From the NCBI GenBank assembly GCA_013115135.1, contig JABANP010000067.1:62001-126000 (forward strand): a stretch of 64,000 bases of DNA, written 5' to 3'. This document shows, one piece after another, positions 1-58,591 of this stretch (within the stretch, counting starts at the first letter, position 1; every line of letters begins with the position of its first letter). Position numbers and translations under genes: made by a program. A model generated the notes under the pieces. That model was not told the origin of the DNA and did no database searches. It saw only the letters and a program-made list of their open reading frames with translations. The stretch comes from Perkinsus olseni (taxonomy: Eukaryota; Perkinsozoa; Perkinsida; Perkinsidae).

Positions 1-3000
1 ACTATAGTGAAGAGCGCTCCGCCCAAGCATCTTCTCGGGAGTCGTTCCGCGTCATCACTCTGGCCGCAAACTTCAAGAATTCACGAAATTTTGGGGAGTT
101 TTTCCCATGATCTTGAGCCTGCCTTCTTGAACTCTTGTCCCCAAACATTCATTCCTCGGCAAAGAAAAAACGCCCTCAAAATTACCCACACCAGTGCGAC
201 ACACCTCCTACACCCGACGTCGGCCTACCTCTCCATAAGGAAAAGATTAAATCGATCATCAGCAACAAGAATCTTCCCATTCGACATGAACTGCAGGGCC
301 GTCGGCCAGAGAGAGAACTCATAGCGAGCTGAAAGTGTGCAGAATCAGAAAGGTCCATGCCTGTCAGGGGCCTACCTAGCTCCGATAATGATGAGCTTTT
401 CGAATCGAAGTGCAACAACGTCACCCCTCTTGTCATGTCACCCACCGCCACCTTGTCGCTGACAAAATGTGTCTCCAACAACAACCTGCGGAATGCATCG
501 CCTACCCCTGAACCTGCATGAAGATGGACGCGATATGGAGATGTCGTTTGGTGACAATCCCCAGTCGGAGACCCCCCTCAGGCTCCTGCTCGACAGCATA
601 CACCTCCACCACGTTATTTACCGTACCTGGCGATAGCGTAGCAAACTCCCCTCACAGAAATGCAATATTGCTTTGATTTCTCTGTTATTACTGCGACTCA
701 GGTTGTGAGATTTCGCGTGTGAGGCGATCACTCATGAAGAAACAAGAAATTTATCAGAGACAATTCATTCTTCGCTCGCCTTCTTTATGATAAAAAAAGT
801 AGACCCCTTCAATAAAGTAATCCTGAATCTCAGAATCGATTCTGCAGATGGTTTATACACGTAAAATGCGGTTCCGGTTCGGAGACCTCAGACAACCGTA
901 CACAGAAGGAAGGGTTTGTTGCTTCCCTCGTCCACCATTGCCGCCATCTGGTAGGGAACACCGGCAACTTCAATCATGGTCACTCGCTCGCACACCTTCG
1001 AGTCGGCCCCGCCAAGTAGTGACGCTGTCGGCTGAAGACGTGAGATCTCCTCAACTCGCTGCGTCAGAAACTCACATCAATTCTGTAAACTTTCACAAAC
1101 CCCTTTGATGGCTCAGCTTCGTCAATCTCCGGAGGTCGAGCTGGTCCCGGAACAACACACGACCCCACGCAAAGATATCTGACAGGAAAAGAGTGAGCCA
1201 CGGGAGTGACTTCTCGTCACCTACACGATACCGCTGTCTCCGGCATCGCCCAGGTCGAAGGTCGCCAGAGAAGAGACCTACAGAGGACGATGGTGATAAA
1301 CGATAGTCTAGGCGACAACCGAACAGATAGCGATGATGGGCCGATAAAAAATTCATTCATAAGAGGCTGCCTCTTAGAGGCATATACTGTGATAATAACG
1401 ATGGACTTCCACTAAGTAGAAAAAATCATTCCAGAATTAACATCCCGAAAAATTTACACGACCTTTCTTCCAAGTGTAGCGAAGAATTTCACAGATTTTC
1501 CAGTCCTAATTCGCCCTCATGCTCCGCCACTCCACAGTGGTCCATTCGATGCAGAGAAAGTATGATAGCATTATGCTCTATTAGCATAGATGGTGATAGC
1601 GTCGTCGTCGCGCTCAGGGACGGAGGGAAGCCAAAAAACTGTAAGAATAAAGGCTTGTACGGCTCACCTCCACAGTGCGGCCCGGTCGTTCATCATCATC
1701 ATCACCCATCATAACATCATCTTCCCGGTCCTCCGCCGGGATCGAGCACACCTCCCGCAGACTCGAACCGTTCACCAAACGCTGGAGGAAACTTCGCCAG
1801 CAAAGGGTTCGGCTGCAGTACTCACCACGCTCGATGATGATGCTCTTCCATCTCCATCGTTATCAGGCCTGCAGCAGAAGAGACGAGATCCCCGGTCGGC
1901 CGCAACCAAACCACCACTCACGTATTCTCCTTATCTGCCAAGCCTTTATGTGCTCCCACCGTGATGGTGGAGACGGCGTAGATATCACCGGTGACGTGTT
2001 CAACGCGCATCGCGGTTTGCCCTACCGGAAAGGAGATCATCGGCATCACATCAGCACGTCCAACCGCTCACCTCTACCGACTGGCCTGTGCCTCGTTTGC
2101 AGCTCACAGGGCTCGTCGGGGGTCAGAGCAGCAAAGGCCAACGATGGCTGAAGATGATGAAAGTTGTGTAGAGTTTCGACGAGATGAGCGGAGAGTGTGG
2201 TACTAATGAAAGAGGATAAGAATCACCGCACAGCACGTGCAAAAATACCAAAAAGTTCTGACCCCTTCTTCACACACACCACCCTCCCTAGCCCGGAGTA
2301 GCGCGGCCAACTCACCTCAGAAGTAACCACTGCCAGCACTGCCGTCTGCTGACTACTCTGGCCACCAGTGACCGCAAAGGCATCATCATCGAATTCAACC
2401 GCACACTCGATCGAAGCTCCTCCTTCAAGCGGATTCACGTTCCGCAGTATCAACTCCTTCCCTGCATCGTCAGCAGTGAGGAGGTACGGGTAGGAGCCTG
2501 AGAGTTGGCTAGCTTGGAGAGGTTACAATTACGCCAGTTTGCTGACCTCTGACGAACAGGCCGTGAATGGAAGGCAACTCGGTGAGGACGACGGGTCGGA
2601 TGCCACCCACGTCCACCTCCTGAAAAACGATGGAATAGCAGACCCTCGACTGAATGGAATTCTGGCCGGCCCAACCGCCGCTGGCGAGCGACTGCTCTAC
2701 ATATTAAAGCTTCACGCGCGTATTGGATGCTATGGACTCTGCGGCCCGTCTGCTTCACACATGATATTCTTTTAGACTAACAAGAGCGTGGGAGAAACAC
2801 GTTTTCAGAACTTGACTTGACGTCTCGCGAGAGTCTCGGTCGCCTAATACAACCATTGAGATATAACAAGCGTTTGTGGTCTCTCACGGGAGACTTGCGC
2901 AGACGAGATTGGCTGCTCTTGCTCAGACTTGCACTAAGCACTGCCGCACTTTCACATCAGGGCGATAAATATGGACGTGCCGGGAATTGAACCCGGGGCC

Positions 3001-6000
3001 TTCTGCATGCGAAGCAGACGTGATACCCCTACACCACACGCCCTGTTGAAAACACAATCTCTATCATAGACCCGCCTTTCCCCGCGAGTCTACTGTCCTC
3101 AAGAGTGCTCAAACTCTCTCTACACTTCATGCGATAGTGTCCAACCATCTACTCTACATCATCGCTCTACTGGGAGTACTTATCCAACTCCGGGCGGGAA
3201 GCGAACAAACACAACCCGATCGACTCTCCCCGACCTACCCGCACAGTCCACCCCGGTGCTTCTGCGCTCTCCGACCACACCACAACCCGACCATCACCAA
3301 GACCACACACGACCACTACTCCCGACTGGGACGTGAGACCAACCGACCGCGCCGAAGTCACTACTATCGATCTGGCAATGAGCACCTCAGAAACGACAAA
3401 TAAAACACACGCACTCACCTCGGGACTGAAGCCTCAGCTTTTGCTGAGCCCAGTGGTATCTGAACGAGCCGCTTGTCGCCCAAGATTAACAGAAATACAC
3501 GTCTGCAGTACCCGCGAGGTGAACTCTCAACGCGGCTAACGCATTCAGTTGTTTGAGATTTCTGTGCACTCCACTTTCCGACCGAATTCGACAGGAAAGC
3601 CGACAACTGTAGAACTGGAGTCCACCCACAGTTGAAGTGTCGGAAAAAAGTTGAGCTTCGCTCCGCTCGGATGAAGCAATCCAGGACAAAAATTGCTAAA
3701 TTAACTTCCGTCAGAAAACCAAGAGAAGCCCCTTCCTGCCCTTACTTCGAGTGGGTTGCGGAATCTTCCCCGACCTTGTCTGTGTTGTACCTCCTTCAAC
3801 ATAAGATACGGCAATGATGACTCCTCTCCAATTTTCGGCCATGAAACCAACAGCAAGCATACCCGAATCGGAGTCATACGCCACGCAGGAGGCTCCAAGC
3901 AACGGCCTAAAAAGCGAATCTTTCTACTCTATCTTTGCTTATGGTCAACCTAAGATATGCATAATCACAAAGTCCGATCAACCTACCTCCCAAAAGACAC
4001 CTGGCTAGATACCACCCGTCCCCCGTCCGCCATCTGATGTATCCAAGGTTGACCTTGGCACATCACAAATAAACCCCGCACAGCAAAGGATTCCCCTTAC
4101 CCAGATCATCAATCGTTATCAAACTATTCCCATCGCCCGCAGCCACGACGAAGTGCCTTCCGTCTCGAGCTTCGGTCGAGTGCACCAAAACAGGCGGGGA
4201 AGAGGCCACATCAACCCATCTAACCTGCAACAAAATTTTCCGGAATTTCCAGAATTTTCCGATATTCGTCGCCTCTTTACTGAGCTGACAACGAATAATT
4301 TGAAAGTAAAAAACGGGCTGAGAAGATAACAAGAGCATTATGCTGAAATTCCAACCTGAAATTTTCCGGAAATTCTCCCGATTTTTTCGCCTCAACAAAT
4401 ACATCAAAACTGAGAAAAGTGCCGAGAAAAAATATCTATACAGATATTTTCGACCCGAAGTTTTCTTCAACTCGTGAAAAATAGAAAATATCCAGGAAAA
4501 ATCCTCCCGCCTCCGATCCTCCTACCACACGTTTCGTAACTTGTACTGCCAGATCCGAGACCGCACCGCACCAGATGGACGGCTCGTCACAGCAAAACTT
4601 GCCCGTGAGATCAAAAGTAACTGTAGGTCCACTCTGGCAGTCGACAGGTGGCAAAGATACTACCTAGCTCAGCATCACCGTTGTCCTTATTGGTGACGAA
4701 ACCGCAGACCGAAGTTGACGTTGCCAGGGATTGAACCTGCGCCCCCAATGATCATCTCCCTCTCTCCTGGCAAGCCCCGACGGTTATGAAATTTTTTACC
4801 CACAACTCGATAGCAATCGGAATATTTTACCCAAATTCAAAAACAAGCGCAACTTTTCCCGTAATTACTGTAGATAGCAATCGTAAATTTTCAGCCCCAA
4901 AAACACTACAACGGATCCCCCCCATAAAACGATGGCACTCGGAATTTTTCCCCCATTTTTCCGCTACCAGCAAGCTTCGACCATGGCGCATCTTGATCGG
5001 CCACATCGTCGATACGTTTTGCCAGGCTACCGTGGCAAACTCCTTCATACCCAACCCAAGCCGGAGAGAACGTATCTTAGAGGAAGGAGAACGTATCCTT
5101 AGAAGACTCGCAGCGCGAAGATTCTTGATAATATAAAAGATATTTCTGAAGAGGTTAACCCTACGGCAAAAAATTAAAATTCTTCAAAAATGTAAACATT
5201 TTTACCCGTGCTGCATGAACGAATTCTGCCGAAAAACACTAAAAAACTACAAAATATGCGAAATTTCCGTGATGCATAGGTTGGGAGTGTGAACAGCGAG
5301 TGGCTCTGCTCTGACCTGTGCAACCCTCATCAGTGCCAGAGCCAGCAGCCAGGCAGTAGCCTGTGCCTGCTGACAACTATCAGTTGGAGGCCACCACGGT
5401 TCAGTAGGACACGACAGCTGCCAGACTCCATACCCGATCTGGGTCGACTCGACAGCCTCCCGTATCCTACCTCCACATCCAGGGAACGGAGGGCTGGGTC
5501 GAGCTCGCGCCCGCGATCATTACAGCCATAACTTCATGGCTGTACCTATTGCTAGAGCCTTACTGGTTCTAGCTTTGAACTTTATTGAACAACCACGACG
5601 TTCTTGTAACCTTTGCGCATCTGCTAACAGTAGTTCGCGTTAGTCTGCCCTGTAGGCAGTGCCCGATGCTGGGCTTAGGCGCCGTCGACTAGACCGTACT
5701 TTTCAACTAAAGGCCCAAGCAAACTGATATTAAATTCCTAGTAGGCTATTGGTGGTAGCAGCAATAGCAACAGTAGCCGCATGTGTCCGTCATAGTATGA
5801 CGGTCATACGGACATGATCTCCCTCTTGACTGGGATAGTAAAGCAACCTGGGCTTCTTGGTCGCTGGCTCCTGGCTACACTGAGGTTGCCACCTTCTTTT
5901 CTTCCGAACGATCGTTTAACCGTAAGAGGGACTTAGTCGCCTCAGTGCTCGGGGATTGTGGACGTGAAGGGGCCAAGTCAGTTACTATGGTCCTTGGGCG

Positions 6001-39425: not shown

Positions 39426-42400
39426 ATGCACCGGTTAGAAGCCATCTTGAAAACTCGGAACTCGGGTGGGCTTTCGCTCCGCTCGTCCTCTGAGAGACTG
39501 TACTCAGGTCGAGATTTATCCTTCTGGTGCAAAGCGTTCGAGGAGATTCTTGAACCACCAACCGCGCAGGAGCAAGCTCAGCTCAAGCTAGCTGTCGCCG
39601 ACCTCCTCGCTGACGTTTTTCTATCGGAGAAAGAATCTAACAAGATTGAATTCAACCATGAGCGCACAGAAGACGGTGGTGAAGGGTTCGAACTCGACTG
39701 GAAGACCTTCACTGAGTATCTGCTCGGTCGGGCAAAGGAATCCGACCGGGCTCGTGAGGGACGGGAGAATCTACGAATGCGTGGATTATCGATTCCAAGA
39801 TGCCCGGTAAGTTCCTTGTCCGGAGGTGACAGTATGTGCCAGTTTGATATGCAAATTACATTATTCATCTTAACTAGTCGTTATGATAATTTTTTTGATA
39901 ATCGTACCTCACAGGGAAGCCGATTAAAGTCACAAGTCAAACAGTGAAACAAGTCTAAATCGATCAACCGTTTCACACACAAAATTTGCGTATCAAACCG
40001 GCACATACAGTACTGTTTTCGACGGTATAATCAGTACCATCAGAACAGTTACTATTCGCGCTACGGGCATGACGATTGTGTGCTCGCACAATCGCAGCTG
40101 CCGATGATGGCCCGTTCCTCAGGCAACAGCTGTCCCAATTTCGATCGACCACTGTCGCCATTATGGCCGCATTCTGTCCTTCCATTCCTTACCCTTGAGA
40201 CCGGCTAAATCCGGGCCCTACGCAAACGTAGATTTCATAGTCTCGGCCGAGGAGGACGCGACCAGCCTGAGAGTGTGGACCTCGCGACGCAAAGACACTG
40301 CCATCCAGTGGGTTGCTGACCTGCTACTGCCTCGGTCAGGCCTCAGAGCCACCCACACTGCAAGCGACGGAATGGAAGGTCGACAGTCGGCCACTTTTGT
40401 GACGGCCTTGCTTACTGATGGAAATATCGGAATCTGGGATCTCGAAGGGTTGTACAAGAATCTTTCGAGTGACCAGCAGCTGCGCTCTCGAATGTGGAGA
40501 TTCCCGTGTCGCGAAGTGATCAGTATGAGTCGGCTGGAGGGCGATGTGGGGTCCTCCTGTGAAGGGCTGTGGTATAGCCAACTGCTGGAAAGCTTCGTGG
40601 TCGCCCATGCCCAGACACACTCTCTTCGAGCGTTCAAACTCACACCCTCTAGGAAGAGTGGGAGTCGCGTAGGTCTCAGGGTCCTGCGGCGTCTCGACAC
40701 CCCTTCCATCTTAGGCCCCTCTCTCAGAGGACTTTACACGCCCTGTAGCAGACCCCGCATCATCAACGGTTCACATCACGCAAGGCATCTGTATGCTCGG
40801 CTGTCACGACGCTAGAGTAACCGCCATTACGGACATCTCTCATCCCACGTCCTCGTCGTCCCTCGACCTGTCCGACAGCCGCCTGATGGCCAGCGTGGCC
40901 GCTGATGCTACGGTCGGTGTGTGGGACCTTCGAACGGGCTATCAAGTAAGCCCTTCCACAGTCAGCCATTCATCAGCATCAACTCCTTCCAGGTGCATCG
41001 TTTCACGATCCCAAACTATGGCGGACCGAGACCGCAGCTACGCTCTATCGCTTATGGGGCGGCGGTCGACCGTCTTGTTATCGCGGGGTCCAGCTGCCTT
41101 GTTTACGTTGTGCAACCTGTCCCCCCACCAGGGTCGGCGAGTCTCGGTCAGTCGGTCATTCGTCGGCTGGTGGGCCACAAGACGCCACTGACTTCGGTCG
41201 CCACTCCGCCGGGAGCTTCCTCGTGCGCCATAAGCTGCGACGAATGGGGAGAGATGCGAATATGGAATTTGAGGAAACTCGAGTGTGTGCAAGTGATCAA
41301 GAGTGCCACTAGCGGACTCAAATGCTGTGGAGCTGAGAAGATGTCCTTCCGAGGTGGGTCAGCAGAAGGAGCGGTGAGGCTGCTTTTCTGCTCTACAAAG
41401 TTCGGACGAGTCGACTTATTTCACTCGAAAAGACCCACTGGTGCCAGCAGGCGGCCAGTGGCGGTGGTCATCAGCTTGCTGAGGTCGACTATTACAGTAG
41501 CAGAGCCGTCGAAGGTGCGCGTTCACAGTCTATCGAACGCTGAGCTCATCACGGAAATTATGGCGCGCGAAATTGGCGAACCGACGGAAGTGGTTGATGA
41601 CAGGACGATAAGCACGATCTCTCTAACAGAAGACCACGGTGAACTCATGGTTGGGTTTTCTGATGGATCTTTGGCCATCCAATTGATGTCGATGAATGGA
41701 AGACACCCTCAACCGGCCGAGGCCCACTCCAACCTTCCCGTTACCGACATAAGGCACTCTGCTGCACGGGGCATGATCATCAGCTTATCGAGTCAAGATG
41801 GGGTCTGCCTGGTCCACGCGGACCGGCCGGGAGGAAGCATACGAACAGGCAAGCGTGGTTTTTGCCTCTCATTCGCAGGGTAGAGCCGCCGTGCGCTATA
41901 CCGCAGAGTGAAAGAAGAATCAATTACGCGTTCAATACGCTGAAGGGACTCCTCGCGAGTGTCGTGTCGGGCGAGGAGGGCCGAGTGAGCCTCTGGTCTG
42001 TAGAGGAAGCAACAGGCCTTACGAGTACGATCAGCACCCAAGGGGTACTCACCAATGACAGAAGGGTTATGGTCGAGGCGGTAGCATTCCTCGAGCCCTT
42101 CTTGGTTCTCGTCGTCCTCACTCGGGAGCATCTGGAAGTCCCAGATCCCGACTGCTGATGATAACACTGTCATTCACGATGCACAAGCAGGAAAGGTCAT
42201 GATGACCATCGCTCGATTCAGATTGAAGGTGGGAAGTTCTCTCCTCCGGCCGCCTTGCAAGCCTGGGTAGGTTTACGTTGGCTCCAACGTGACACCGCAT
42301 TGGACGCCCATCATTGACCGCGCTGATAAGAAGGTTGAGCATCATTTTGATATCCCCCTGACTGAGATCGAACCCCCTATCCGAGGATCATCTTCTACCG

Positions 42401-46127: not shown

Positions 46128-47138
46128 TCACACCTCAGACTCAGAAACACCCGCGAAGGTCCGACGGAAAGCTAAACTCCGCTTGAGCACGAAAGTGTGC
46201 GGCAAGCCAATATCCCACTTATGGAGGTCGTTGCGGCCAAGTCTTCTCCAGACGTGTTGCGGGCCACACAGTTGAATCGAACTTCCTGTCAGCGGGCGTG
46301 GGTGAGCGACACTTCCTCGGCCCTTCTCTCGAGACACTAGCGTTTGCTGCTTCTGCTTCCTCCCATCCCTGAGTTTTTTCATTACAATGTAGGTGGCCAC
46401 TTTCTCGAAAGGCAATTTTGGAACTGCTGTTATTAGAGAAAGCACACCATCGCATAGTGGGTAATACATGGCCATTCGATTCTCCTTGCTGATCTGCCAA
46501 ACGCTGAGGTCAGCGTCTCTCAAAGAGCCGTTGTTGAAATTGAGGTAGAGACTTTTAAAGGGCCCATCACCGGAGTAGGGGCCATCAAGCACCGAAACAT
46601 TACGGGAGGGTTTGAGCGCGGCGAAGCCACGATTGCATAACTCATTCAACTCACCTCGGATCTCTCCTGAGGCGTCGACATACTCAGTATCGCCACCAGG
46701 CAGAGATTTCAGCCTGTGGATGCGATCGAAGCAGTTCCCATCTCTAACGACGTTGGCAGTGTACTCCAGAGTCATTCCGCCTTCTACGCGTAGTATTCTA
46801 GTCTGATTCACCGGCTCATCATCTTCAAATCGAGCGTTGTGCGTTGCGAGGTCGCAAGTGTGCAAGCCCGTCCAGCCAGGCTCGCCACTCCGACTTGTCA
46901 CTTTATCGGGGAAAGATTCGAACGTTGCAGTAAGCCCTGCCATGGACCAAGTGAAGGGATCCATGATAGGTACGGAGCCCCTTGGAAAGAAGAAATACTC
47001 CACTTCACCATCGCGCAGTTGTCCATACAGCAGTTCTTGTTGTCTGAACTCTTGAGCCTTGGTGAGGTATACCAGTAGACAACTGACCAGGCCAATACAC
47101 CAGAATGTATTGTTGAGGAGGGAAGACGCGAGAGCCAT
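46128..47138 (-). CDS. Secreted array protein, copy 1 (intact, 336 aa)
   Basis: I do not recognise this family. Start: the ATG at 47138 (MALASSLLNNTFWCIGLVSC) is the position shared by all copies, although the frame is open further upstream. The first 29 residues form a signal peptide with a hydrophobic core IGLVSCLLVYL and probable cleavage after TKA. Then comes a segment shared by the family, QEFRQQELLYGQLRDGEVEY, and then a divergent mature domain with motifs CDLATHNARF, GNCFDRIHRL, ELCNRGFAALKPS, RMAMYYPLCDGVLSL and LHKWDIGLP. The spaced Cys residues suggest disulfides outside the cell. It has no introns, unlike other genes in the window. Its C-terminus is longer than in most copies (ends FAGVSESEV). 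Confidence 0.8.
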   Translation of the reverse strand: MALASSLLNNTFWCIGLVSCLLVYLTKAQEFRQQELLYGQLRDGEVEYFFFPRGSVPIMDPFTWSMAGLTATFESFPDKVTSRSGEPGWTGLHTCDLATHNARFEDDEPVNQTRILRVEGGMTLEYTANVVRDGNCFDRIHRLKSLPGGDTEYVDASGEIRGELNELCNRGFAALKPSRNVSVLDGPYSGDGPFKSLYLNFNNGSLRDADLSVWQISKENRMAMYYPLCDGVLSLITAVPKLPFEKVATYIVMKKLRDGRKQKQQTLVSREKGRGSVAHPRPLTGSSIQLCGPQHVWRRLGRNDLHKWDIGLPHTFVLKRSLAFRRTFAGVSESEV

Positions 47139-47165
47139 TGAAGGAAGCGTTCTAAGCTGATGGAT
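47139..47165 (-). promoter_or_regulatory. Conserved leader upstream of the array start codons
   Basis: Read on the minus strand, the bases before the copy 1 ATG are TCAGCTTAGAACGCTTCCTT then CA. Close variants precede the ATG of copies 3, 4, 5, 6 and 7 (near 50,100; 51,760; 53,402; 55,195; 57,048), always with GAACGC- or GGACGC-like sequence followed by TTCCTTCA. The position fits a 5' untranslated leader or start-site element conserved along with the signal peptide. Confidence 0.5.
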
Positions 47166-47587
47166 GAGACTCACGCCGTGAGTCTCACGGAACCCCTGGT
47201 TCAAGGAGCTGCGTTGAGTGGAGACATCGATTCTGTCGCATTCCCTGAACCAGCGCAATCTGGCATTTCGTTGGTCCAGGAAGTCGATCCTGGACAGAAA
47301 ATTACAGCGTTTTGTCAAAACGGTTTTGAGTGCCGCATCATCTTTGCAAGCTTCTTATCAACACAACTGGGCTGCCTCATACACAGCGCAACACCTCAAG
47401 CATGCCATGATACCGGAGAAGATACCTCAGCGCTTTGCAAATGGGTTCTGCATCGACACATGTCTCTGCAAAAGGAAAGGCAAAAATTTACTCAAAATTC
47501 GAATAAATTTCTGAATTATTCGTATAATAATCTGACCCGTTCAACACCAGCCTGCGAGTCGCCGTGAGAGAATTTCACCATGACGAC

Positions 47588-48522
47588 TCAGAATTTTGGT
47601 TTGAGCGAAAACTCCTCTCCTAAGCTGCGATCCCACATATGAAGATGAAGGTCATCGAGGTATCTTTTCACGTGGTCCTCGCGACAAAGCCGATCTACAC
47701 TTTCTCTCCTCTGACTTCTCTTCCGTAGAGAAAACCAGTGGGGGTGACTTGCTTTTTTCTCGAGAATCACAATACTTGTTCGACCATGAGGGGAATCATC
47801 CACCCTCAGTATCAAAGATATCACACCGTCACAGAGGGGGTAATAAGTTACCAGTTGATATCTAGCAATTTCGCCGACAGTAAGACCTGCTTTAACCAGC
47901 TTTCCCCGCATTAAATCTCAGAGACAGACTTCTCTCCATCTGTGCACCAGTGTATTCACCATCTAACACTGACGGACTAGGCATAGGTTTGAGCGTTTCG
48001 AAACCTTTCTTGCATAAACCCTCTAATTCTTCTTCCACATCTATCGACCCTTTTTCACTTCCGAACGCCCCATCTTCGGAGCAGCAAGAGTTCATCAATT
48101 TTATATTAGCGAAGCATTTTTCACCTCGAACAACGCGAGCGACGTACTCGCAGGTCTGCCCATTTTCTAGTCGAAAAATGGTGGTCGCATTTACCACTTC
48201 ATCCCGACTGCGCTCGGTGTTGAATGGCATATAATCGGCTACGTACAAGTCCATCTTTTTGGCCGCATGGCCCAGCGTTTTCGCCTTCCCCGGAAAACTT
48301 AGGTCTTCTCCGCTCAAACCATGCTCTCTGGACTGAACGACGTTGGCGAGGGCTGCGTCGAGCCTCGGTTTGAGGAGGAACTGCACTTGACCGCCGCGCA
48401 CTCGCCCGTACAATAGTTCCTCTTGCCGATACTTTTGAGCTTTGATGGGGCATACCAGTAGACCAAATGATCAGGCCAATACACCAGAATGCTTTGCTAG
48501 GGAGGGTAGAGGAGAAAATCAT
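47588..48522 (-). pseudogene. Secreted array protein, copy 2 (frameshifted)
   Basis: The most divergent copy. It starts MIFSSTLPSKAFWCIGLI at 48522, but one extra base after FWCIGLI (ATTTGGTC against the usual AGTTGTC) throws the signal peptide out of frame. The following frame reads QKYRQEELLYGRVRGGQV. A second one-base break occurs near 47,900 at a CCCC run, between SLSLRFN and KLVKAGLTVGEI. The C-terminal half keeps LVTYYPLCDGVISLI and LHMWDRSLGEEF. Two breaks suggest a pseudogene; assembly error is possible. Confidence 0.7.
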
Positions 48523-49076
48523 TGATGAATACAAATGCATACAAGTCATTGATGAATACAATCTTCGTACGTTCAAAGCTGATGCTGACAGTGTCAGGCC
48601 TGACACGAAGGGCGCCTCACTCAAGATTCATTCGAAGTAGATTCTCTGCCAGAGATCCTCCGAGAATCTCTGGCGTCGTGCCTCCCTCGTCCAGGGCACG
48701 GAGGCTGGGCACATCTCACGTCTGCCATTGCGACAAATCTTCATTGCCTAGATTTTATGTTGCTCGATTGGCCATACATGGGGTTTTGTCATCTCATTTT
48801 TACCGAGGAATTGTTGAACCCGAAACTGCCATTTAGTGCACACACCTATGCCGTGATAAAGGCGAGCGGCCGACAGCACATCGCCATAAGCACACTCAGA
48901 AGGAGTCATGGCCTTCTGAAGACATTGAGCAGTCAAGAATAACGATGAATGAGCAAAGGACAAATAAACATATACGGGTACAAAGACACGGGGCTATCAC
49001 AAAGACACTGTTTCGATTTTGGCGCCCATTCCCAACGTTGCCAATTTCGATATATCTGTGTAAAAGCATCTAGTCC

Positions 49077-50098
49077 TCAGCCCGTCGTCGCCTTCGGTTT
49101 GAGGATGAAACTCTCAGGCAAGTCGCGATCCCATTTTTCGAGCTCATAGCGACCAATCGTTCTCCTCACGTGGTGATCATTGCAGAGATTCTGTGAGTAA
49201 TCCTCACCGACCGGTGAAAGAAGCTCGAACTCTTCCTTCGGAACTTTTCTTCGTGGGATCATCTTCTTCTGCGCAGCGCGCATTTTTTCCCTCAAGAAAT
49301 CTGCCGTGCTCTCTCTTTTCTTCGACGGACTTTTTCAAGTATCAAGTAGGTGGGTTGATTCTCAGTAGGTAACCCTATCTGCGGTATGACGGAGATTATA
49401 CCGTCACAGAGAGGGTAAAACATGGCCATACGAAAATCATCGTTGACCTCTGAGACACGGAGATTTGCCTTCATCAAGGTACCCTGGTCAAATTCCAACG
49501 CGAGACTTTTTCTTAATCCGTTGCCGACATATGTCCCGTCCAACCCTGCCAAGTCAGGGGAGGGTTCAAGCGCGAGGAAACCGTCATTGCACAACTCCTC
49601 TAATTCCTCCCGAATATTCTCCGGCGCTTCCATGTACCCGCCGCTGCCAATGGAGTTGGCAGATACCCATTTCCAGATAGTCCCAAAACACTGACCGCGT
49701 CCATTGATGTCCGCCAGATACTCGGAAGTCTCACCCTTTTCTAGGCGAAAAATTCTTGTCATACCAACAGACTCGTTATTATCCGCTCGGGCGTTGTGCA
49801 ACGCGTAGATGCCGGCGTGTAGATCTGCTTTCTTTTTGCACTTGCGGTCAAGGCTCTTCACACTGTCCGGGAATACTTTCACCGTCTCTGTGAGCCCGAG
49901 GTCCATGGACGCTTTTATGCTCTTGATGGGAACGGTACAGCGCGGCAAGAGAATATACTCCACTTTACCATCGCGCAATTGACCATGCAACAGTTCTTGT
50001 TGTCTGAACTCTTGAGCCTTGGTGAGGTATACCAGTAGACAACTGACCAGACCAATACGCCAGAATGTATTGTTGAGGAGGGGAGACGAGAGAAGCAT
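49077..50098 (-). CDS. Secreted array protein, copy 3 (frame change near the C-terminus)
   Basis: It starts at ATG 50098 (MLLSSPLLNNTFWRIGLVSC) and is open through RMAMFYPLCDGIISVI to a stop at 49292, giving 268 aa. The expected tail (FELLSPVGEDYSQNLCNDHH, then YELEKWDRDLPESFILK) lies in the next frame at 49077-49295. So the copy either ends early by about 65 residues or carries one base change near 49,290, where GGG and AAAAAA runs occur. Its mature domain lacks the Cys of the usual HxCxY-HNAR block (HAGIYALHNAR). Confidence 0.7.
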
Positions 50099-50775
50099 TG
50101 AGGGAAGCGTCCCAAGCTGAACAGTGATTCGACGAATCAGATTCGCTCTATTTTCTGATTTCGCGGAGATTGGAACTGGTCTCCCGAATCCCTGCGCTAG
50201 TCCATCCGAGAGCAGGGCAGAAACTAGACAGAATATGAACACGCCTGAGATAAATATCCCTGAGCGAATTACCCTTCTAATTTCAGTTCGGTTCATCGTG
50301 ATAAGATGAATCGTCGTCGTCGATGATCGTACAAACGGACCGTTTGAAACGGTCGTGCAACCGACTCATCGATCTAGTATGCCGATCGATGACAGACTAG
50401 ACGGAATCTCCTCTACCTGCTCCCACTTGCTTCGCTCTTTTATCATCCAAGGTCAACCTCGTTAACCCTCCTGAACCGATGCATTTTCAACACCATTTCA
50501 CTTCGTTGTGTGAACAACGTGACATCCCAACATGCCAAGGCGTTGCGAAGGCTTCATGCACAATACCTCGAGGCGCGTCCACACTCACGAGTGTATGATA
50601 GTCATAGCGGCTGATAGGTAGAGAGGCGAAGAATTACCGACTATCGAGGTAGCTGTTTGTCTCCGTTGAAATCTTCTCGACATTTTCAACCGCCTGCTAA
50701 CTTCGACTGCGGTTGAATCTTACCCTTCGCCGCTTCGTTTTTTCTTCTATCCGAAATTTACAGCCAAGCTTTGAG

Positions 50776-51758
50776 TTAAAATTTTGCTTTGAGGGTAAAT
50801 TTATTAGACAAATGACGATCCCACTTATACAGATCATCACGCTGAAGTTTCCTATTGAAGTGGCCAGCATGGCAGAGTGGACTCCCATGATCATCGCTGG
50901 TAAGGGGAAGGAGCTCCGAGGTCGCGGCTGTTCTTCGTCCCCTTATCCACGAAAGAAAACTGCGGCGCTGCTGCGGGCTCTCTCTCCCGTACTTCTTCAA
51001 TATCAAATAGGTCGCCGCACTCTCAGAAGGCAAACTTGTTTCTAGAATGACAGATATTATCCCGTCGCAGAGGGGATAATACGTTGCTGTTCGCCGCTCT
51101 TTGCCGACCTCCCCAACGGTAAGATGGGCGTCTCTCACGAAGCCCCCGTCGAATTCCAACGATAGATGTCTGCCAGCGCCGGAACCGGTATAGTTGCCAT
51201 TCAGAATCCGACAGGTCCGGGGAGGGTTTGAGTGCTTGCAGACCTTTTATGCACAAACAGGCTAGCCTCCTTCCGGATGTCCTCCGGTGCTTCCACGTAA
51301 GCGCCTTCTCCCTCAATGACATTGTAAGGCTTCCACAACCGCACGTCATCAAAGCATTTTTCACTTCGGTTAACCCCGGCCAGATACTCTTGAGTAACAC
51401 CGCCCTCGATGCGGAGTATTCTTGCCTCGTTCACTAGCCCGTCGTCGTCGTCGCACCGAGCGTTGTGCAATACATACTCGCAAACGTGTAAGTCCGTCTC
51501 GCTGTGGTTGCGGCCTCTGGTATGATTGAAGAACAATTGGATTCTCGTTGTCAGACCATGCTCCATGGAATCGGTGAGGGTGCGAATGGGCATCAAAACA
51601 CTCGGGAAGAAAATATACTCCACTTCACCATCGCGCAGTTGTCCATACAACAGTTCTTGTTGTCTGAACTCCTGAGCCTTGGCGAGGTATACCAGAAGAC
51701 AACTGACCAGGCCAATACACCAGAATGTATTGTTGAGGGGAGAAGACGAACGGGCCAT
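50776..51758 (-). pseudogene. Secreted array protein, copy 4 (multiple frameshifts)
   Basis: It starts MARSSSPLNNTFWCIGLVSC at 51758 and runs in frame through DLHVCEYVLHNARCDDD and SEKCFDDVRL. The frame then changes near 51,260 (the family segment KGLQALKPSPDLS appears in another frame) and again near 51,160, before MEFDGGFVRDAHLTVGEV. The C-terminal half is open to 50776 and ends LYKWDRHLSNKFTLKAKF. At least two breaks in the middle make this a likely pseudogene. Confidence 0.7.
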
Positions 51759-52430
51759 TGAAGGAAGCGTTCAGAACTGAATGATGAGGTTCGAATGGTC
51801 TCTGTAGGAACCACGGTCTGCTGAAAAATCAAGTCGAATCTAGACAGGCTGTCTGAGAAAGCAACTTCAAAATATCAATTACAATAGAGGAATCTTTACG
51901 AGGTTCGATTTGACCTCGTCGATGGATCCTAAGCTGTGAAGACAGTGACTCTCTGATAGTCTACATTGTAGACTACCTTCACAGCTTGAGCTAAGCCTTC
52001 TCCACCCTGGACGGACGCCGGTAGTGATGCACCAGCGTCTTCCAGTGACCTCTCCGAGCTTTCCTGTGCTTCAGTCCAACTGTATATTCGATGAACGATC
52101 TGGCAAGACTTTTGGACCCCAAGATTTTCCGAATTTTTTCTCACTCTCCCAGGCTCTCCCTCCGATTGATGAACGTCAAGTCACCGTCGTGTGAGCATAA
52201 CGTAACATGGGTAACACATGGCCTGCAAGAATAGACTGGTTCGGAACATCCGGAGTAAGCTTTGCAGCCACGTACCAATACCTCTACCGATACACGATGA
52301 TGTAAGAACAAAAATAAGTTGATAAACGATATAGAGTGACTCAGAATTGTTTTTCGTCTTTCCCATCAAACACAGCGTTTTTGGTTCAAAACCATTCACC
52401 GCCGAACTATCGAGCCTCACTCTACCACAT

Positions 52431-53400
52431 CTAGGCCTTTCTCTTCAGGATAAATTTTTCAGGCAAATTGCGATCCCACTGAGCCATCTGACTTCGACGA
52501 AGTTTTCTCCTAACGTGTTCAGGTTTGCAGAGATAGTTTGAACCTTCGTCACCAACGAGTGGTTGAGCCTCATCTTCTTCTCCTCGTCTTTTTCGCAGAG
52601 ATATCAAATTTTTGCGCTGCCTCGCACTTTCTCTGGACCTCTTAAGTATCAGGTAGGCGGGAGTTTCTTCAGACTTCAAGCCCGGCTCTGGTGAAACGAG
52701 TGATAGAATCCCGTCACATACAGGATAATACATAGCCATCCGTGTTTTCTCGCTGATCTCTCCGAACACTAAGGTATGCGTCTTTTAACGTACCGTTGTT
52801 GAAATCGAAGTAAAGGCCTTTCCCTGGCCCATCACCAGTGTAGATGCCGTCCAACGTCGACACATCAGGGGAAGGTTCCAGCGCGACGAATCCGGTGTGG
52901 CATAGTTCAGCCAATTCGTTGTCGATCTGTCCCGATGCGTCCACGTACTCACCACCGTCTTCAGAAGACTTCCACTTCCAAATACGGTCGAAGCAATTGC
53001 CGTCTCCAGCGACGCTGGCAAGGTACTCCACGGTTATCCCACCCTCCACGCGGAGAATTCTAGGCATCTTCACCGGCGTGTTATCATCAAACAGAGCATT
53101 GTGCGTTACGTAGTCGCAGGTTTCTAGATGGGTCGTCCCTGGAGTGCCGGTGCGACTGGACACCTTGTGGGGGAACAGTTGAAAGGTGGTTGATATCCCG
53201 GCCTCATTCGAAGTCTTAGGGCTGTTGATGGGTGTCCGGGGCCTTGGTAATACAATATATTCCACTTCACCATCGCGCAGTTGCCCATACAGCAGTTCTT
53301 GTTGTCTGAACTCTTGAGCCTTGGTGAGGTATACCAGTAGACAACTGACCAGGCCAATACACCAGAATGTATTGTTGAGGAGGGAAGACGAGAGAGCCAT
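52431..53400 (-). pseudogene. Secreted array protein, copy 5 (single frame break)
   Basis: From MALSSSLLNNTFWCIGLVSC at 53400 the frame is open to about 52,760, covering LETCDYVTHNALFDDN, GNCFDRIWKWKSS and ALEPSPDVSTLDGIYTG. Compared with copy 1, one extra base in TTCGGAGAGATC shifts the frame; the rest (EISEKTRMAMYYPVCDG to LPEKFILKRKA) is open to the stop at 52431. Without that base this would be a full-length member, so it may be intact in the organism. Confidence 0.65.
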
Positions 53401-54146
53401 TGATGAGAGCGTTCAAGGCTGAAACGTAACCTTTTCTACTGCGATACCTGAGTTGGGTGACCGAAAACCCCTGATACAGAGTTTTATTGGTAAATCGCAG
53501 CGACTACCACCTTTTTGATGCGGGTCCAGGTGGATGAGGGAATGGGCCGGAAGGAAGCCACACACAGGCTGAAGTCACTCCTGTTACAGGAGTCCTGTAT
53601 TCTATCGACCATTCATGTGATCTTGGGATCTCCAACTGCTCTGCTGCTCATGATCATAATGACTTGACCTTCGTTACACTCTCTAGACAGGAGAACACTA
53701 GTCATTAGTGCAGTGTCATTAGTGTCTACATCATTAATGGCTGGGTGACAAAGTTGATGACATACCGAGTGCGATCTCATGCAGAAAAGTTGGTCCCATC
53801 ATTCGGGTCCCGAATTTCGGGATAGACTCAAGCGGAGTCATCGACCATAAGAAAAGCACAGCCCTTAGGCATGACTTCTGTGCGAACTCGAGTAAGGAAA
53901 ACGTTCCGACCGTAGATAAATTAACAAACACTACAGTATTATCATTTGGGCACAACATAACATGAGTGGCACACGAAATACAAAAATAAGTTGATCCAGA
54001 GCACCATGAGCATCCTCTCCATTTTCATCAACATATCTACCTATACACCATGTTGTCGAATAAACAGCGAACTGATAAATGATTTCGGGACGCGGAGAGG
54101 AGGGCAAGATGGCGGGCATGGTTTTCGGTTTTGCACGCCTCACTGC

Positions 54147-55193
54147 TCACGCGTCGGACTCAGAGACGTCATCGTCGGACGCGTAGGGTAGGGGTTGAGT
54201 GGTGATACCGAAATCTTCGGGCAAGTCGAGATCCCACTGGTCGAGAAGATCCTCGCGATTAATCCTTCTCCTCACGTGATCAGCACGGCAGAGGTCGTAT
54301 GAGACATCGTCCGTAACGAGCGGGCCGAGTTCGATATCAGTCAACCTCTTACGACCTCTCCTCCATGGTGGAATAGTGAAAAGATTCTTAGCTCGATCAG
54401 TCCAGGGTGTCTCATTCCCTTCTTGGGACTTTTTGAGAATCACGTAAGAAGAGGTTTGTTCGGAAGCCAGATTGATAGCTGGAATGACGATGGAGATGAC
54501 TCCGTCACATAGCGGGTAATGGGTAGCAACGCGGTATTCCTTGTCAACCTCCGAGACGGTAAGACTGGCGTCCTTCACCTTGCCCTTGGAAAATTTGAAT
54601 TTAACCCTTCTTCCTTGCCTGTTACCCCTGTAGATTCCGTCCAGCACAGAAAAGTCAGAAAAAGGGTAAAGCGCGAAAAAGCCGTCCTTGCAGATCTCGT
54701 CCAGTTCGCCCACGATATCCTCCGAGGGGTCCCCAGTTTCAAAAAGAGTCGAATCTCTCACGAAGCGGACATTGTCAAAACACTTGCCATCCCCGACAAC
54801 GTCGGCGATGTATTCTGAGGTCTCACCATCCTCACCCACACGGAGTATTCTGCATTTGCTGACAGGATCGTCGGTGGCCCACCAAGTGTTGTGAGGAATC
54901 ATGTCCATCGTGTACAAGTCAGCCTTCTTGTTAGACTTGCGACTTTTAGTTTTGTCACCGAAGCCTTTATACCTCTCGAACGAACTCATACCGATTTCCA
55001 GGGATGTGTTGAGCTCGCTAACAGCTACCGTGTCTCGCGGCAAGAAAATGAACTCCACTTTCTTATTGAAGAGTTTCCCATACAGTAGTTCTTGTTGTCT
55101 GAACTCTTGAGCCTTGGTTAGGTATACCAGTGAACAACTCACCAGGCCAATACGCCAGAATGTATTGTTGGGGAGGGAAGACGAGCGGGCCAT
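54147..55193 (-). CDS. Secreted array protein, copy 6 (intact, 348 aa)
   Basis: Uninterrupted from MARSSSLPNNTFWRIGLVSC at 55193 to the stop at 54147. The signal peptide and QEFRQQELLYGKL block are conserved. The mature part is among the most divergent: Lys-rich (KTKSRKSNKKADLYTMDMIP) and lacking the first conserved Cys, but it keeps GKCFDNVRFV, RVATHYPLCDGVISIVIP and DQWDLDLPEDFGI, with an acidic tail SDDDVSESDA. Full length and an open frame despite divergence suggest that selection maintains it. Confidence 0.8.
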   Translation of the reverse strand: MARSSSLPNNTFWRIGLVSCSLVYLTKAQEFRQQELLYGKLFNKKVEFIFLPRDTVAVSELNTSLEIGMSSFERYKGFGDKTKSRKSNKKADLYTMDMIPHNTWWATDDPVSKCRILRVGEDGETSEYIADVVGDGKCFDNVRFVRDSTLFETGDPSEDIVGELDEICKDGFFALYPFSDFSVLDGIYRGNRQGRRVKFKFSKGKVKDASLTVSEVDKEYRVATHYPLCDGVISIVIPAINLASEQTSSYVILKKSQEGNETPWTDRAKNLFTIPPWRRGRKRLTDIELGPLVTDDVSYDLCRADHVRRRINREDLLDQWDLDLPEDFGITTQPLPYASDDDVSESDA

Positions 55194-56091
55194 TGAAGGA
55201 TGCGTTCTAGCCTGAGGCGAGTATGTCGGCATCACAAACGAGATACGCTCGGATACCTTCTTCGCTCGGACGGGCAGCTAAAAAAACCGTTGAAAGTGAT
55301 CACACGAGTGAAGAGCTTCCGGATCGCTGAACGTTCTCAGTGAAACCTCGAATATTGGAGGGGAAATATTAGGCGCCCGATTCAACTCCAGCTCAGTCAG
55401 CGCGCCCAAGCGATCGATCGCAGCTGGGAACACGAGACGGTCTGTCTCAGACGGGGACGGCGCCCGTGATTCGGGTCTCCTGGGTCTCTGGTTGGCAGTT
55501 TTCCACCCGACGGTCAGGTCGACTCACCAACTTCCATCGTGGAGGCCCTTCACGGGCAGGTTTCCAAACCAAATCGGGGCTGAGCGGAAGAGCTGCTTGG
55601 AGGTCGTTTCGCCTTATAACTCTGACTGCAGGCTTCAAGGATCTACAGAACTTTGGAGTCGGATTTTCCATGGTATTGAGCCTCCCTGGCCCGATTTCCA
55701 TCGACAAACCCCTCATTAGTCGGCGACGAAATGCCCTCGAATTCACTCACACCGGAGTGGAACACCCGTTAATAGCATTTGAGCCCGGCCCCTTGGCTCC
55801 CCTCGTGAGACAACATGTAACTCTACTCCACTGTCATCGTGTACAGAACGTGGCATGATTAACAATCAATTTACATCTGAAGAAGTCAGCTCGGGAGCCG
55901 CGAAGATCTTCGCAGAAACCCCCTGCGTCTATATATATTGATGAATGCTCCAGTACATGATAATAATTAGCTGGCTGATGACGAGTAAAGGTTAAGCAGG
56001 ACGACAGCTGCTGACTACTCTTCTTGCTTCATCATTTGCAACTCTTTCCACTCATATATATGACGAGCAACTTAGTGGTGACCCAACTTAC

Positions 56092-57046
56092 TTAGGCTTT
56101 CATGTCGAGTACGAACTTCTCCGGCAAGTCCCGATCCCACTTATTGAGCTCGTCGCGCTCGAGCTTTCTTCTGACGTGCTGAGGACCGCAGAGGTCGTTC
56201 GAGTGACCGATCTGCGGACGGACTGGAACGTCCTCTCCGCGCCTTCTCCTCGAAGAAGTCGAGCCTAAACTTTGCTGTCTCCTTCCTCCGAGTCTTTTCA
56301 ATAGCAAATAGGTAGCCACCTTTTCAGAGGGCAGCTCAGCTACAGGCGTTATGAGGGATATCATTCCGTCACAAAGGGGATAGTACATCGCCATCCGGCT
56401 CTTCACGTCGACCGCCCTGACACGGAGATCCGCGTCTTCCAAAGTACCCCCTTCGAAAACCAGCGACAGACTCTTCCCGAGTCCGCTCCCTCTGTACGTG
56501 CCACCCAGCTGCGACAAGTTCGAGGAGGGTTGGAGCGCAACGAAGCCTCGGTTGCATAGGGTAGTTAGTTCTTGCCTAATACCTTCAGGGGCGTCCACGT
56601 ATTCACCAGTCTGGTCGCGCTCCCAGATATTAGCGAAACATTTCCCGTCGTGAACAACGTCCGCGAAGTATTCTGCGGTTACGCCATCCTGCAGGCGAAG
56701 CGCTCTGGCCACTTTCACTTCTCTGTTACTGCACCGCAGAGCTTTATGGGTCACGAAATCACAGACTTGTAAGTCGGTCGTCAGGGGAGGGTTGAGTAGA
56801 TTTGCAACTCTCCCGCGAAACTGTTTGGATATTTGTACTCATTCCTGACCTACGTACATACTCAGGGGTATACATAGATACCGGAGTAGATCGGAAAAAG
56901 ATGTATTCCACTTTACCGCTACGTAGTTGTCCATACAACAGTTCTTGTTGTCTGAACTCTTGAGCCTTGGTGAGGTATACCAGTAGACAACTGACCAGGC
57001 CATAACACCAAAACGTATTGTTGAGGAGGGAAAACGAGAAGGTCAT
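56092..57046 (-). pseudogene. Secreted array protein, copy 7 (single frame break)
   Basis: It starts MTFSFSLLNNTFWCYGLVSC at 57046. The frame breaks near 56,790 beside a GGGG run, in the segment before QVCDFVTHKALRCSN, and the remainder (GKCFANIWERDQTGEYVDAP to ELNKWDRDLPEKFVLDMKA) is open to 56092. The N-terminal mature region is shorter than in other copies. Only one lesion was seen, so sequence error is a real alternative. Confidence 0.65.
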
Positions 57047-58591
57047 TGGAAGAAGTTTTCGAAACTGAGTTTAGCAGGAATTCTATAATTTACTAGTTTC
57101 AACAATAACTTAATACACCAAGATATAGCAAGCCTCCAGAGCAAGCTAAACGTCTAGCTTAAGAACAGATATTTTGTTCGCAGACGTCTCTGGAAAACGC
57201 GCGCACTATGACACTCGTGGGTTATGCAAGTATATATCCGAGTACGTCTCACCGTGCATCATACATGGTAAAAGAAGCCAGAAGCTATGAGGGAGTCTCT
57301 CCAGTCTACTCCGGAAAAAAGTGGATGCTCGAATCTCCATATGCCGGAATAGCGCGCCAAAATGATCGATGAAAATGCTCAGTTCGAGGCTAACACTACG
57401 CGCAGCATCGTATCCGCTTCTGTTTCCGATACCCTACACTGATCCTTGATAGTGATGGCTGCTGGCATCAGCCTGCTGCGAATACTGGATCATGGCGCAC
57501 TCGTAGCTGTGCATATATCTCCAATCAAAGACGGATGATGCGTGCTACTACTACACCATTTCCACACCAAGTTGATTTGATGATACCCTGCACGAAACCT
57601 GTGTAGTGTAGAGTGGTGCAAACATTGGTCCGTGGCGCGCTCGTGTCCTGATACGCTTTGTAGTCTGTCTTCGCCTATCCGTCACAGTGGACAGCGGCGG
57701 CGGATGGCTGTCCAAATCTGGGCCATTGGACAGTCCAATGGCCCAGATTTGATCGGCAGGGCGGGACAAGTCGAGTTGAGTCAACTCGTCACCTCAGTTG
57801 ACGAGATTTGGGCGGGAAGCTGCGATCGGGCCTAGGTTTCCATTTGGTGTAGAAGCACGTCAGACGGATGATGCGTGCGAGCACTTGTACTCTCGCTTCT
57901 TAAATATGAAAGACATGCCAGTGGGAGCCCACTACACCCAGTAGATTCGAGTTTCCAACCTGCAATCTGTATGATATCGAGGGCTAACTTTGTGTTGGCT
58001 GAAGATTGTCAGTGTTGCCATCCTTGTTGATCACTCGGTCGGGCTGTGCTTAACCGGTCTCGCTTAGAATCAAAGAGCTCTGGGTTTCTACTAATTTCGT
58101 TATCCTTCTAGCATTTGAGGATAGATGCCTTGCGATAGTTTACTGTTGGTGGCTCATCAACGGTAAGCGTGCTGGCTCCATTGAATTGAGTCGGTCCCCC
58201 GCCCGAAAGACTGACAGATCATCTGTCACAGATGATGAGCGTGTCGGTGTCGTCTAGGAGTAGCTCGCGAAGTGGGACCTACACCGGCGGTGTAACACCG
58301 CTCACTGTTGCTGAAAACCCAGGCCTTCTGCACAACTTGCGCAGCACAAGTCATCATCATAATCAAGATGTAGCTTATGATTAAGAAATAAGTTTCCAGG
58401 GAAAAGTTATTTCTGTTGCACGGTGCTACTTGTAGCGGTAGAGAGTCAGCGCCGCTGACAGTCAGCGGTACGCTGGCACGAGGCTCGCAGAACCTTTTTT
58501 CGGGTTATGAGGGTGGGTCGTGTCACGCAGCAGGATCTGGACTTGGAATTCTAATGAGCGATCATTGTAGGGAATCTCATATTCCTCCACT
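57047..58591. other. Intergenic region after the secreted-protein array
   Basis: 1.5 kb without a supported gene. It contains the palindrome at 57713-57751, a second short inverted pair GAGTTGA-GTCAACTC at about 57,773-57,788, the imperfect palindrome TGACAGATCATCTGTCA near 58,209, and one AGCGCGCC-N-TGATCGAT motif at 57351-57370. Confidence 0.5.
57713..57751. repeat. 19-bp perfect inverted repeat with a one-base loop
   Basis: CAAATCTGGGCCATTGGAC at 57713-57731 is followed by one A and its exact reverse complement at 57733-57751. Such a tight palindrome resembles hairpin 3 of the NT5C intron in form but not in sequence. Confidence 0.9.

What the first reader, a model, noticed from the sequence alone, without database searches (positions are those of the whole stretch)
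46128..57046. Tandem array of seven intronless secreted proteins with frozen signal peptide and divergent mature domain
Seven same-strand copies in 11 kb begin with almost the same residues (LNNTFWCIGLVSCLLVYL, then TKAQEFRQQELLYGQL). At DNA level this block is nearly identical in six copies, while the mature part is widely divergent apart from short motifs (YYPLCDG, KWDRDLPEKF). All the other genes are rich in introns; these have none. This pattern is typical of effector or surface families evolving by duplication with diversifying selection. I know of no named family with these motifs.
Basis: partly seen in the sequence, partly recalled or inferred. Interest (0 to 1): 0.88.

Follow-up and report, generated by a model that had tools for sequence, protein, structure and literature searches.

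The report
Tandem secreted-protein genes sharing recombined starts
A clam parasite carries a row of seven related genes for probably secreted proteins; their starts look almost identical, apparently because the copies overwrite each other's first 180 bases, while the rest of each protein is old and has drifted apart, and five of the seven copies look broken.

Summary
In detail: seven minus-strand copies in 46,128-57,046. Six share a block from about -22 to +155 of the ATG, 82-90% identical in 14 of 15 pairs; the rest is highly diverged. The genome is Perkinsus olseni (tags FOZ60). Five of seven copies have interrupted frames; only copies 1 and 6 are whole. And the 'frozen' block is not explained by a conserved signal peptide alone: silent sites are near-identical in it too (pooled pS 0.26, against 0.71 outside), far more than in sister clusters. 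Local gene conversion explains this best; another family member is a clear mosaic. dN/dS gives no sign of gene-wide diversifying selection (0.26-0.58 in nine close pairs, none from this array). The family has about 37 loci, no convincing Pfam, NCBIfam or fold match, and named relatives only in P. olseni. Features: hydrophobic N-terminus, four cysteines in 16 of 16 full-length members, a confident beta-rich model (pTM 0.82). Most likely a lineage-specific family of secreted host-interface proteins under birth-and-death evolution; secretion and role are inferred.

The parts
46128..47138 (-). copy 1, intact, 336 aa
   Evidence: single open frame from Met to C-terminal motif; other P. olseni isolates encode P0006 (mature 272/288 identical) and P0003 (253/288)
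47588..48525 (-). copy 2, degenerate: 5' block only 76% alike, frame interrupted near both ends (5' limit approximate)
49077..50098 (-). copy 3, frame interrupted near the C-terminus (268-aa piece)
   Evidence: the frame pieces overlap, so no room for an intron
50776..51758 (-). copy 4, frame interrupted in mid-gene; another isolate has an uninterrupted protein as deposited (P0005)
52431..53400 (-). copy 5, frame interrupted in mid-gene (228-aa piece)
54147..55193 (-). copy 6, intact, 348 aa
   Evidence: other isolates: P0018 (mature 111/112 identical, partial) and P0001 (264/284)
56092..57046 (-). copy 7, frame interrupted early in the mature part
46983..47160 (-). homogenised 5' block of copy 1, about -22 to +155 (CAG, short leader, ATG, signal peptide, RQQELLYGQL)
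49943..50120 (-). homogenised 5' block of copy 3
51603..51780 (-). homogenised 5' block of copy 4
53245..53422 (-). homogenised 5' block of copy 5
55038..55215 (-). homogenised 5' block of copy 6 (ends nearer +122 against copies 5 and 7)
56891..57068 (-). homogenised 5' block of copy 7

Best explanation
This is one tandem cluster of a Perkinsus olseni-restricted family of secreted proteins without introns, evolving by birth and death. SHOWN: the copies are old paralogues (silent sites at or near saturation in the mature part), five of seven are interrupted, and in this array the first ~180 bases are near-identical at silent sites too, far more than in the sister clusters. INFERRED: short gene-conversion tracts between neighbours keep re-homogenising the 5' end (putative trans-splice acceptor, start codon, signal peptide and the RQQELLYGQL motif). 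That stretch stays similar enough for recombination because its protein sequence is under more constraint, whereas the mature parts have diverged beyond the similarity that conversion needs. INFERRED: each transcript receives a spliced leader at the CAG about 20 bases before the ATG, and the product enters the secretory pathway and loses its signal peptide near TKA/QEF. The mature product would be a disulphide-bonded (four invariant Cys), two-part beta-rich protein that binds some external ligand, most likely of the mollusc host (cell surface, plasma or phagosome).
For: Pooled silent divergence, block against rest: array (15 pairs) pS 0.26/0.71; C244 (6) 0.53/0.66; C68 (15) 0.63/0.61; C51 (1) 0.55/0.64. 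For copies 1, 3, 5 and 6 none of 247 forty-codon windows beginning after residue 50 is as low as the block (0.21; lowest other 0.57). Fourfold sites: 8 of 10 testable array pairs p<0.05, 1 of 6 in C244, 0 of 15 in C68. Ten of 15 pairs start aligning at -22/-23, at the CAG; 14 of 15 end between +122 and +158. AG lies at -25..-16 in 18 of 20 members given. Another family member (C68:300601) is 97-100% identical to one paralogue for ~450 bp and then closest to another; C136 also looks mosaic. Hydrophobic N-termini; four Cys in 16 of 16. Model pLDDT 79.7, pTM 0.82. All named database relatives are P. olseni.
Against: Even between clusters the block's silent divergence is lower than outside (pS 0.53-0.63 against 0.65-0.77), and C244's block is its lowest window (0.53; lowest other 0.58), so some family-wide nucleotide constraint is likely to contribute. 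Tracts end at similar places, which conversion alone does not require. Two of 10 testable array pairs show no significant fourfold difference. Secretion was judged by hydropathy, no signal-peptide predictor being available; one sister protein (C244) has an internal 19-residue stretch at 1.74, high enough for a membrane span. No expression, localisation or binding data. No assigned fold. Frame breaks could partly be sequence errors in the assembly; reads were not available. dN/dS gives no positive sign of an arms race.
Confidence: 0.6

Rival explanations
1. The block is held by purifying selection at the nucleotide level (splice-acceptor context, translation start, RNA element in the signal-peptide coding region), without gene conversion.
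For: The block begins at a putative splice acceptor and contains the start codon; its silent divergence is lower than outside even between clusters (0.53-0.63 against 0.65-0.77); C244's block is its lowest window.
Against: C68 relatives with the same architecture show no depression (128 of 243 other windows as low) and the C51/C68 set of three only a slight one (14 of 243); between clusters the block still differs at more than half of silent sites, against a quarter within the array; mosaicism exists elsewhere in the family.
Confidence: 0.18
2. Recent duplication followed by strong diversifying selection on the mature domain.
For: Mature parts differ far more than the block; array proteins differ by 5.6-16% in the mature part between isolates, apart from one comparison of copy 6 at 0.9%, against 1-3.5% in C244 and 4.1% in C235 (orthology assumed).
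Against: Silent sites of the mature part are at or near saturation, so the copies are not recent; nine closer pairs of the family have dN/dS 0.26-0.58; C68 (6.3-11.3%) and C136 (5.9-14.8% in two pairs) vary between isolates as much as the array does.
Confidence: 0.12
3. The array is mostly a relic: decaying pseudogenes with one or two working genes and no current host role.
For: Five of seven copies interrupted.
Against: Copies 1 and 6 are intact and have close counterparts in other isolates; copy 4 is uninterrupted in one deposited model (P0005); C244 has four full-length copies, all unbroken, plus a fragment near the contig end.
Confidence: 0.25
4. Secreted, but not host-directed: for example cell-wall, mating or self-recognition proteins of the parasite.
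For: No host-targeting motif: RxLR in 0 of 16 full-length members; no functional data at all.
Against: Restricted to one parasite species in the databases searched, multicopy and variable among isolates, which is more usual for host-interface families (inference).
Confidence: 0.3

Closest known systems
Hessian fly SSSGP-1 salivary protein cluster (PMC2955719; abstract, and section 'Concerted homogenization', read)
   Same: Seven clustered genes in about 15 kb, conserved signal-peptide coding region, highly diversified mature region; its authors propose homogenisation, discussing short conversion tracts.
   Different: There promoter, UTRs and an intron are conserved and strong positive selection is reported. 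Here homology stops at about -22, little upstream or downstream of the genes is conserved, the intact copies have no intron and no gene-wide dN/dS above 1 was seen. No sequence relation was tested.
Phytophthora sojae tandem RXLR effector loci (Avr3c PMC2678259, Avr1c/Avr1a PMC3933651; search listing only)
   Same: Tandem or multi-copy secreted proteins with strain polymorphism.
   Different: RxLR in 0 of 16 full-length members here; different organism.
Neisserial NHBA / factor H binding protein, streptavidin and lipocalin-type beta-barrels (PDB)
   Different: Below the level that separates real from common arrangements; Foldseek has no match at E <= 0.001.

Membership tests
SSSGP-like pattern (homogenised leader, diversified mature part) | tandem cluster of secreted-protein genes | tested here: met
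   seven same-strand copies; secretion by hydropathy only
SSSGP-like pattern (homogenised leader, diversified mature part) | signal-peptide region conserved also at silent sites | tested here: met
   pS 0.26 against 0.71
SSSGP-like pattern (homogenised leader, diversified mature part) | promoter, UTRs and intron conserved too | tested here: not met
   identity 0.32-0.39 upstream of the block; no intron in the two intact copies
SSSGP-like pattern (homogenised leader, diversified mature part) | positive selection on mature region | tested here: inconclusive
   silent sites at or near saturation in the array; gene-wide dN/dS 0.26-0.58 in nine closer pairs from other clusters; site tests not run
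RXLR effectors | RxLR motif soon after the signal peptide | tested here: not met
   0 of 16 full-length members
PEXEL-exported proteins | RxLx[E/Q/D] soon after the signal peptide | tested here: not met
   2 of 16 within residues 16-101, both at residue 91 of two near-identical copies outside the array
any Pfam or NCBIfam family | convincing profile match | tested here: not met
   Pfam 0 of 6 array frames at E <= 1; NCBIfam 0 of 2; of 22 aligned members three Pfam families each match one member, best E 0.0047 (that table gives no cut-offs); C235 one match at E 0.23, below cut-off
NHBA/fHbp/avidin/lipocalin-like barrels | significant structural match over most of a domain | tested here: inconclusive

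The most novel reading that the evidence does not exclude
A new, P. olseni-restricted superfamily of secreted two-part beta proteins in which a compact 5' module (splice acceptor, start, signal peptide, RQQELLYGQL) works as a recombination anchor, so that copies, interrupted ones included, exchange segments and supply chimeric secreted proteins to the host interface.
Probability: 0.22. Interest if true: 0.75.

Novelty: new member of a known kind. Interest (0 to 1): 0.5.

Why it matters
Little is known of how Perkinsus parasites of clams and abalone interact with their hosts (recalled). If these proteins are secreted during infection they are a ready list of candidate host-interface molecules and strain markers. 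The array also shows how leaders can be kept uniform by gene conversion, which a reader of sequence can mistake for functional constraint plus an arms race.

Tried and rejected
First structure model (copy 6 with signal peptide, 16 rows) was poor (pLDDT 43) and not used; the second (copy 1 mature part, 24 rows) was good. Foldseek against PDB and viral models gave nothing at E <= 0.001. One weak PDB sequence match (E 0.032, a Cas1) was judged chance; the single-sequence search had none. Viral contigs: one peptide pattern, 5 stretches, none confirmed. Phage records: no match to copy 1 by tblastn. The block as a mobile module elsewhere in the genome: not seen, seven matches, all in the array. Frame breaks as introns: rejected for copies 3, 4, 5 and 7. 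Telomere-proximal location: no exact (TTTAGGG)3 found, but the tool skips simple repeats, so untested. Rfam found only a tRNA. The bacterial promoter scan is uninformative for a eukaryote. Papers: eight library searches; no title or abstract listed describes this family; the library lacks most subscription journals.
Full report
WHERE IT IS. The window is contig C634:62,001-126,000 of a 61.5-Mb, 968-contig assembly. Database proteins named Perkinsus olseni with locus tags FOZ60 lie on contigs of 312,867 and 59,746 bases, the lengths of C68 and C244 here, so the genome is taken to be P. olseni, isolate FOZ60. Perkinsus is an alveolate parasite of molluscs (abstracts).

THE OBSERVATION. Seven minus-strand copies lie in 46,128-57,046. 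Copy 1 (336 aa) and copy 6 (348 aa) are whole; copies 2, 3, 4, 5 and 7 have interrupted frames. For copies 3, 4 and 5 the frame pieces overlap and for copy 7 the listed ORFs lie 4 bases apart, so introns (39 bp or longer in published P. marinus genes, PMC3101222 passages) do not account for them. Sequencing error cannot be excluded, but the four full-length copies on C244 are all unbroken, and one other isolate has a deposited, uninterrupted counterpart of copy 4 (P0005).

THE BLOCK. The 5' DNA block has seven matches in the genome, all in the array. Of the 15 pairs among six copies, 10 begin to align at -22/-23 and one at -30; four begin later; 14 end between +122 and +158 and one (copies 1 and 5) runs to +398. 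Identity in those stretches is 0.82-0.90, except 0.77 for the long one; the six pairs with copy 2 are 0.74-0.78. AG at -20 occurs in six of six of these copies and AG at -25..-16 in 18 of the 20 family members given; by the local AG rate 0.46 per member is expected (binomial tail 5e-5, but the rows are related). Perkinsus uses spliced-leader trans-splicing (PMC3101222, passages), so this is read as an acceptor; that is inference.

WHY IT IS NOT JUST A CONSERVED SIGNAL PEPTIDE. Inside the block (codons 9-48) silent sites differ by pS 0.26 and replacement sites by pN 0.07; outside 0.71 and 0.39 (15 pairs). The closest pair (copies 1 and 5) has 2 silent differences in 27 sites in the block and 72 in 116 outside. 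For copies 1, 3, 5 and 6 none of 247 other 40-codon windows is as low. Other clusters do not share this strength: C244 0.53/0.66, C68 0.63/0.61, C51 0.55/0.64; C136 is young throughout (0.19/0.24). Against my reading: between clusters the block is also lower than the rest (0.53-0.63 against 0.65-0.77), and C244's block is its lowest window (0.53; lowest other 0.58), largely through one pair. So some constraint on the block's nucleotides probably adds to conversion. At fourfold sites 8 of 10 array pairs reach p<0.05, 1 of 6 in C244 and 0 of 15 in C68; the five pairs with copy 7 had too few sites. Elsewhere in the family conversion is visible directly: C68:300,601 is 97-100% identical to one paralogue for about 450 bp and then nearer to another; C136 copy 2 follows its two neighbours to different degrees along its length.

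AGE AND SELECTION. In the mature-domain tree the array copies except copy 2 group together (support 82/90), with deep branches, and proteins of other isolates pair with copies 1, 4, 6 and 7. Mature parts are identical to isolate counterparts by 94.4 and 87.8% (copy 1), 83.9 and 90.9% (copy 4, two pieces), 91.3% (copy 5, fused model), 93.0 and 99.1% (copy 6), 92.2% (copy 7); C244 96.5-99.0% (3 pairs), C235 95.9%, C68 types 88.7-93.7% (4), C136 85.2 and 94.1% and a third at 73.2% that is probably not orthologous. Two further rows, P0007 and P0021, are this genome's own proteins and are not isolate comparisons. Orthology is assumed. So the array is not clearly more variable than C68 or C136. Nine closer pairs, all from C136, C68 and C51 and some of them pieces of interrupted copies, give dN/dS 0.26-0.58; eight have dS of at most 0.29 and one 0.88; four bootstrap intervals reach 0.92-1.66 and none lies above 1. 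So a gene-wide arms race is not shown; site-level selection is open.

FAMILY. Searches with four members give about 37 loci by my count: C634 7, C244 5, C136 3, C68 8, C51 8, C44 1, C235 1, C112 3, C474 1, fragments included; parts of C51 and C68 carry three matching genes in the same order and may be haplotypes. The tool calls such counts lower bounds. Three protein searches against 5.8 billion sequences found named relatives only in P. olseni, though the profile reached members 20-26% identical to C235; only the 7,997 best candidates were scored. Unnamed rows P0007, P0010 and P0019 are the window's own.

VERDICT. A real species-restricted family of probably secreted proteins, not described in any listing I saw, whose uniform starts in this array are best explained by gene conversion; a new member of a known kind of gene family, with the function inferred only.

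Noticed in passing
window 50098-50296 (-): The frame of copy 3 continues upstream of its Met to another ATG with a second signal-like hydrophobic stretch (MNRTEIRR...).
   Followed up: no
L034 (C68:299101-302679): Family copy that is a clear mosaic of two paralogues: about 450 bp at 97-100% to one, then nearer to another.
   Followed up: yes
C51:103.9-110.7 kb and C68:291.7-297.9 kb: Three matching family genes in the same order; the one compared along its length is 95% identical at protein level. Haplotypes or a segmental duplication.
   Followed up: partly
L039, L054 (C235, C112), and L056 (C474): Distant branches of the same superfamily; C112 has a small tandem group of its own.
   Followed up: partly
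P0009, P0011, P0016, P0020: Deposited P. olseni gene models seem to fuse or skip parts of neighbouring copies or sequence, probably annotation artefacts.
   Followed up: no
C136, C244, C68, C51: Four of the five large clusters lie near contig ends, perhaps because tandem copies break assembly.
   Followed up: partly
window 2972-3043 (-): tRNA-Ala (CGC).
   Followed up: no
window 40921-41883 (+): Open frame with weak WD40/beta-propeller matches, below cut-off.
   Followed up: no
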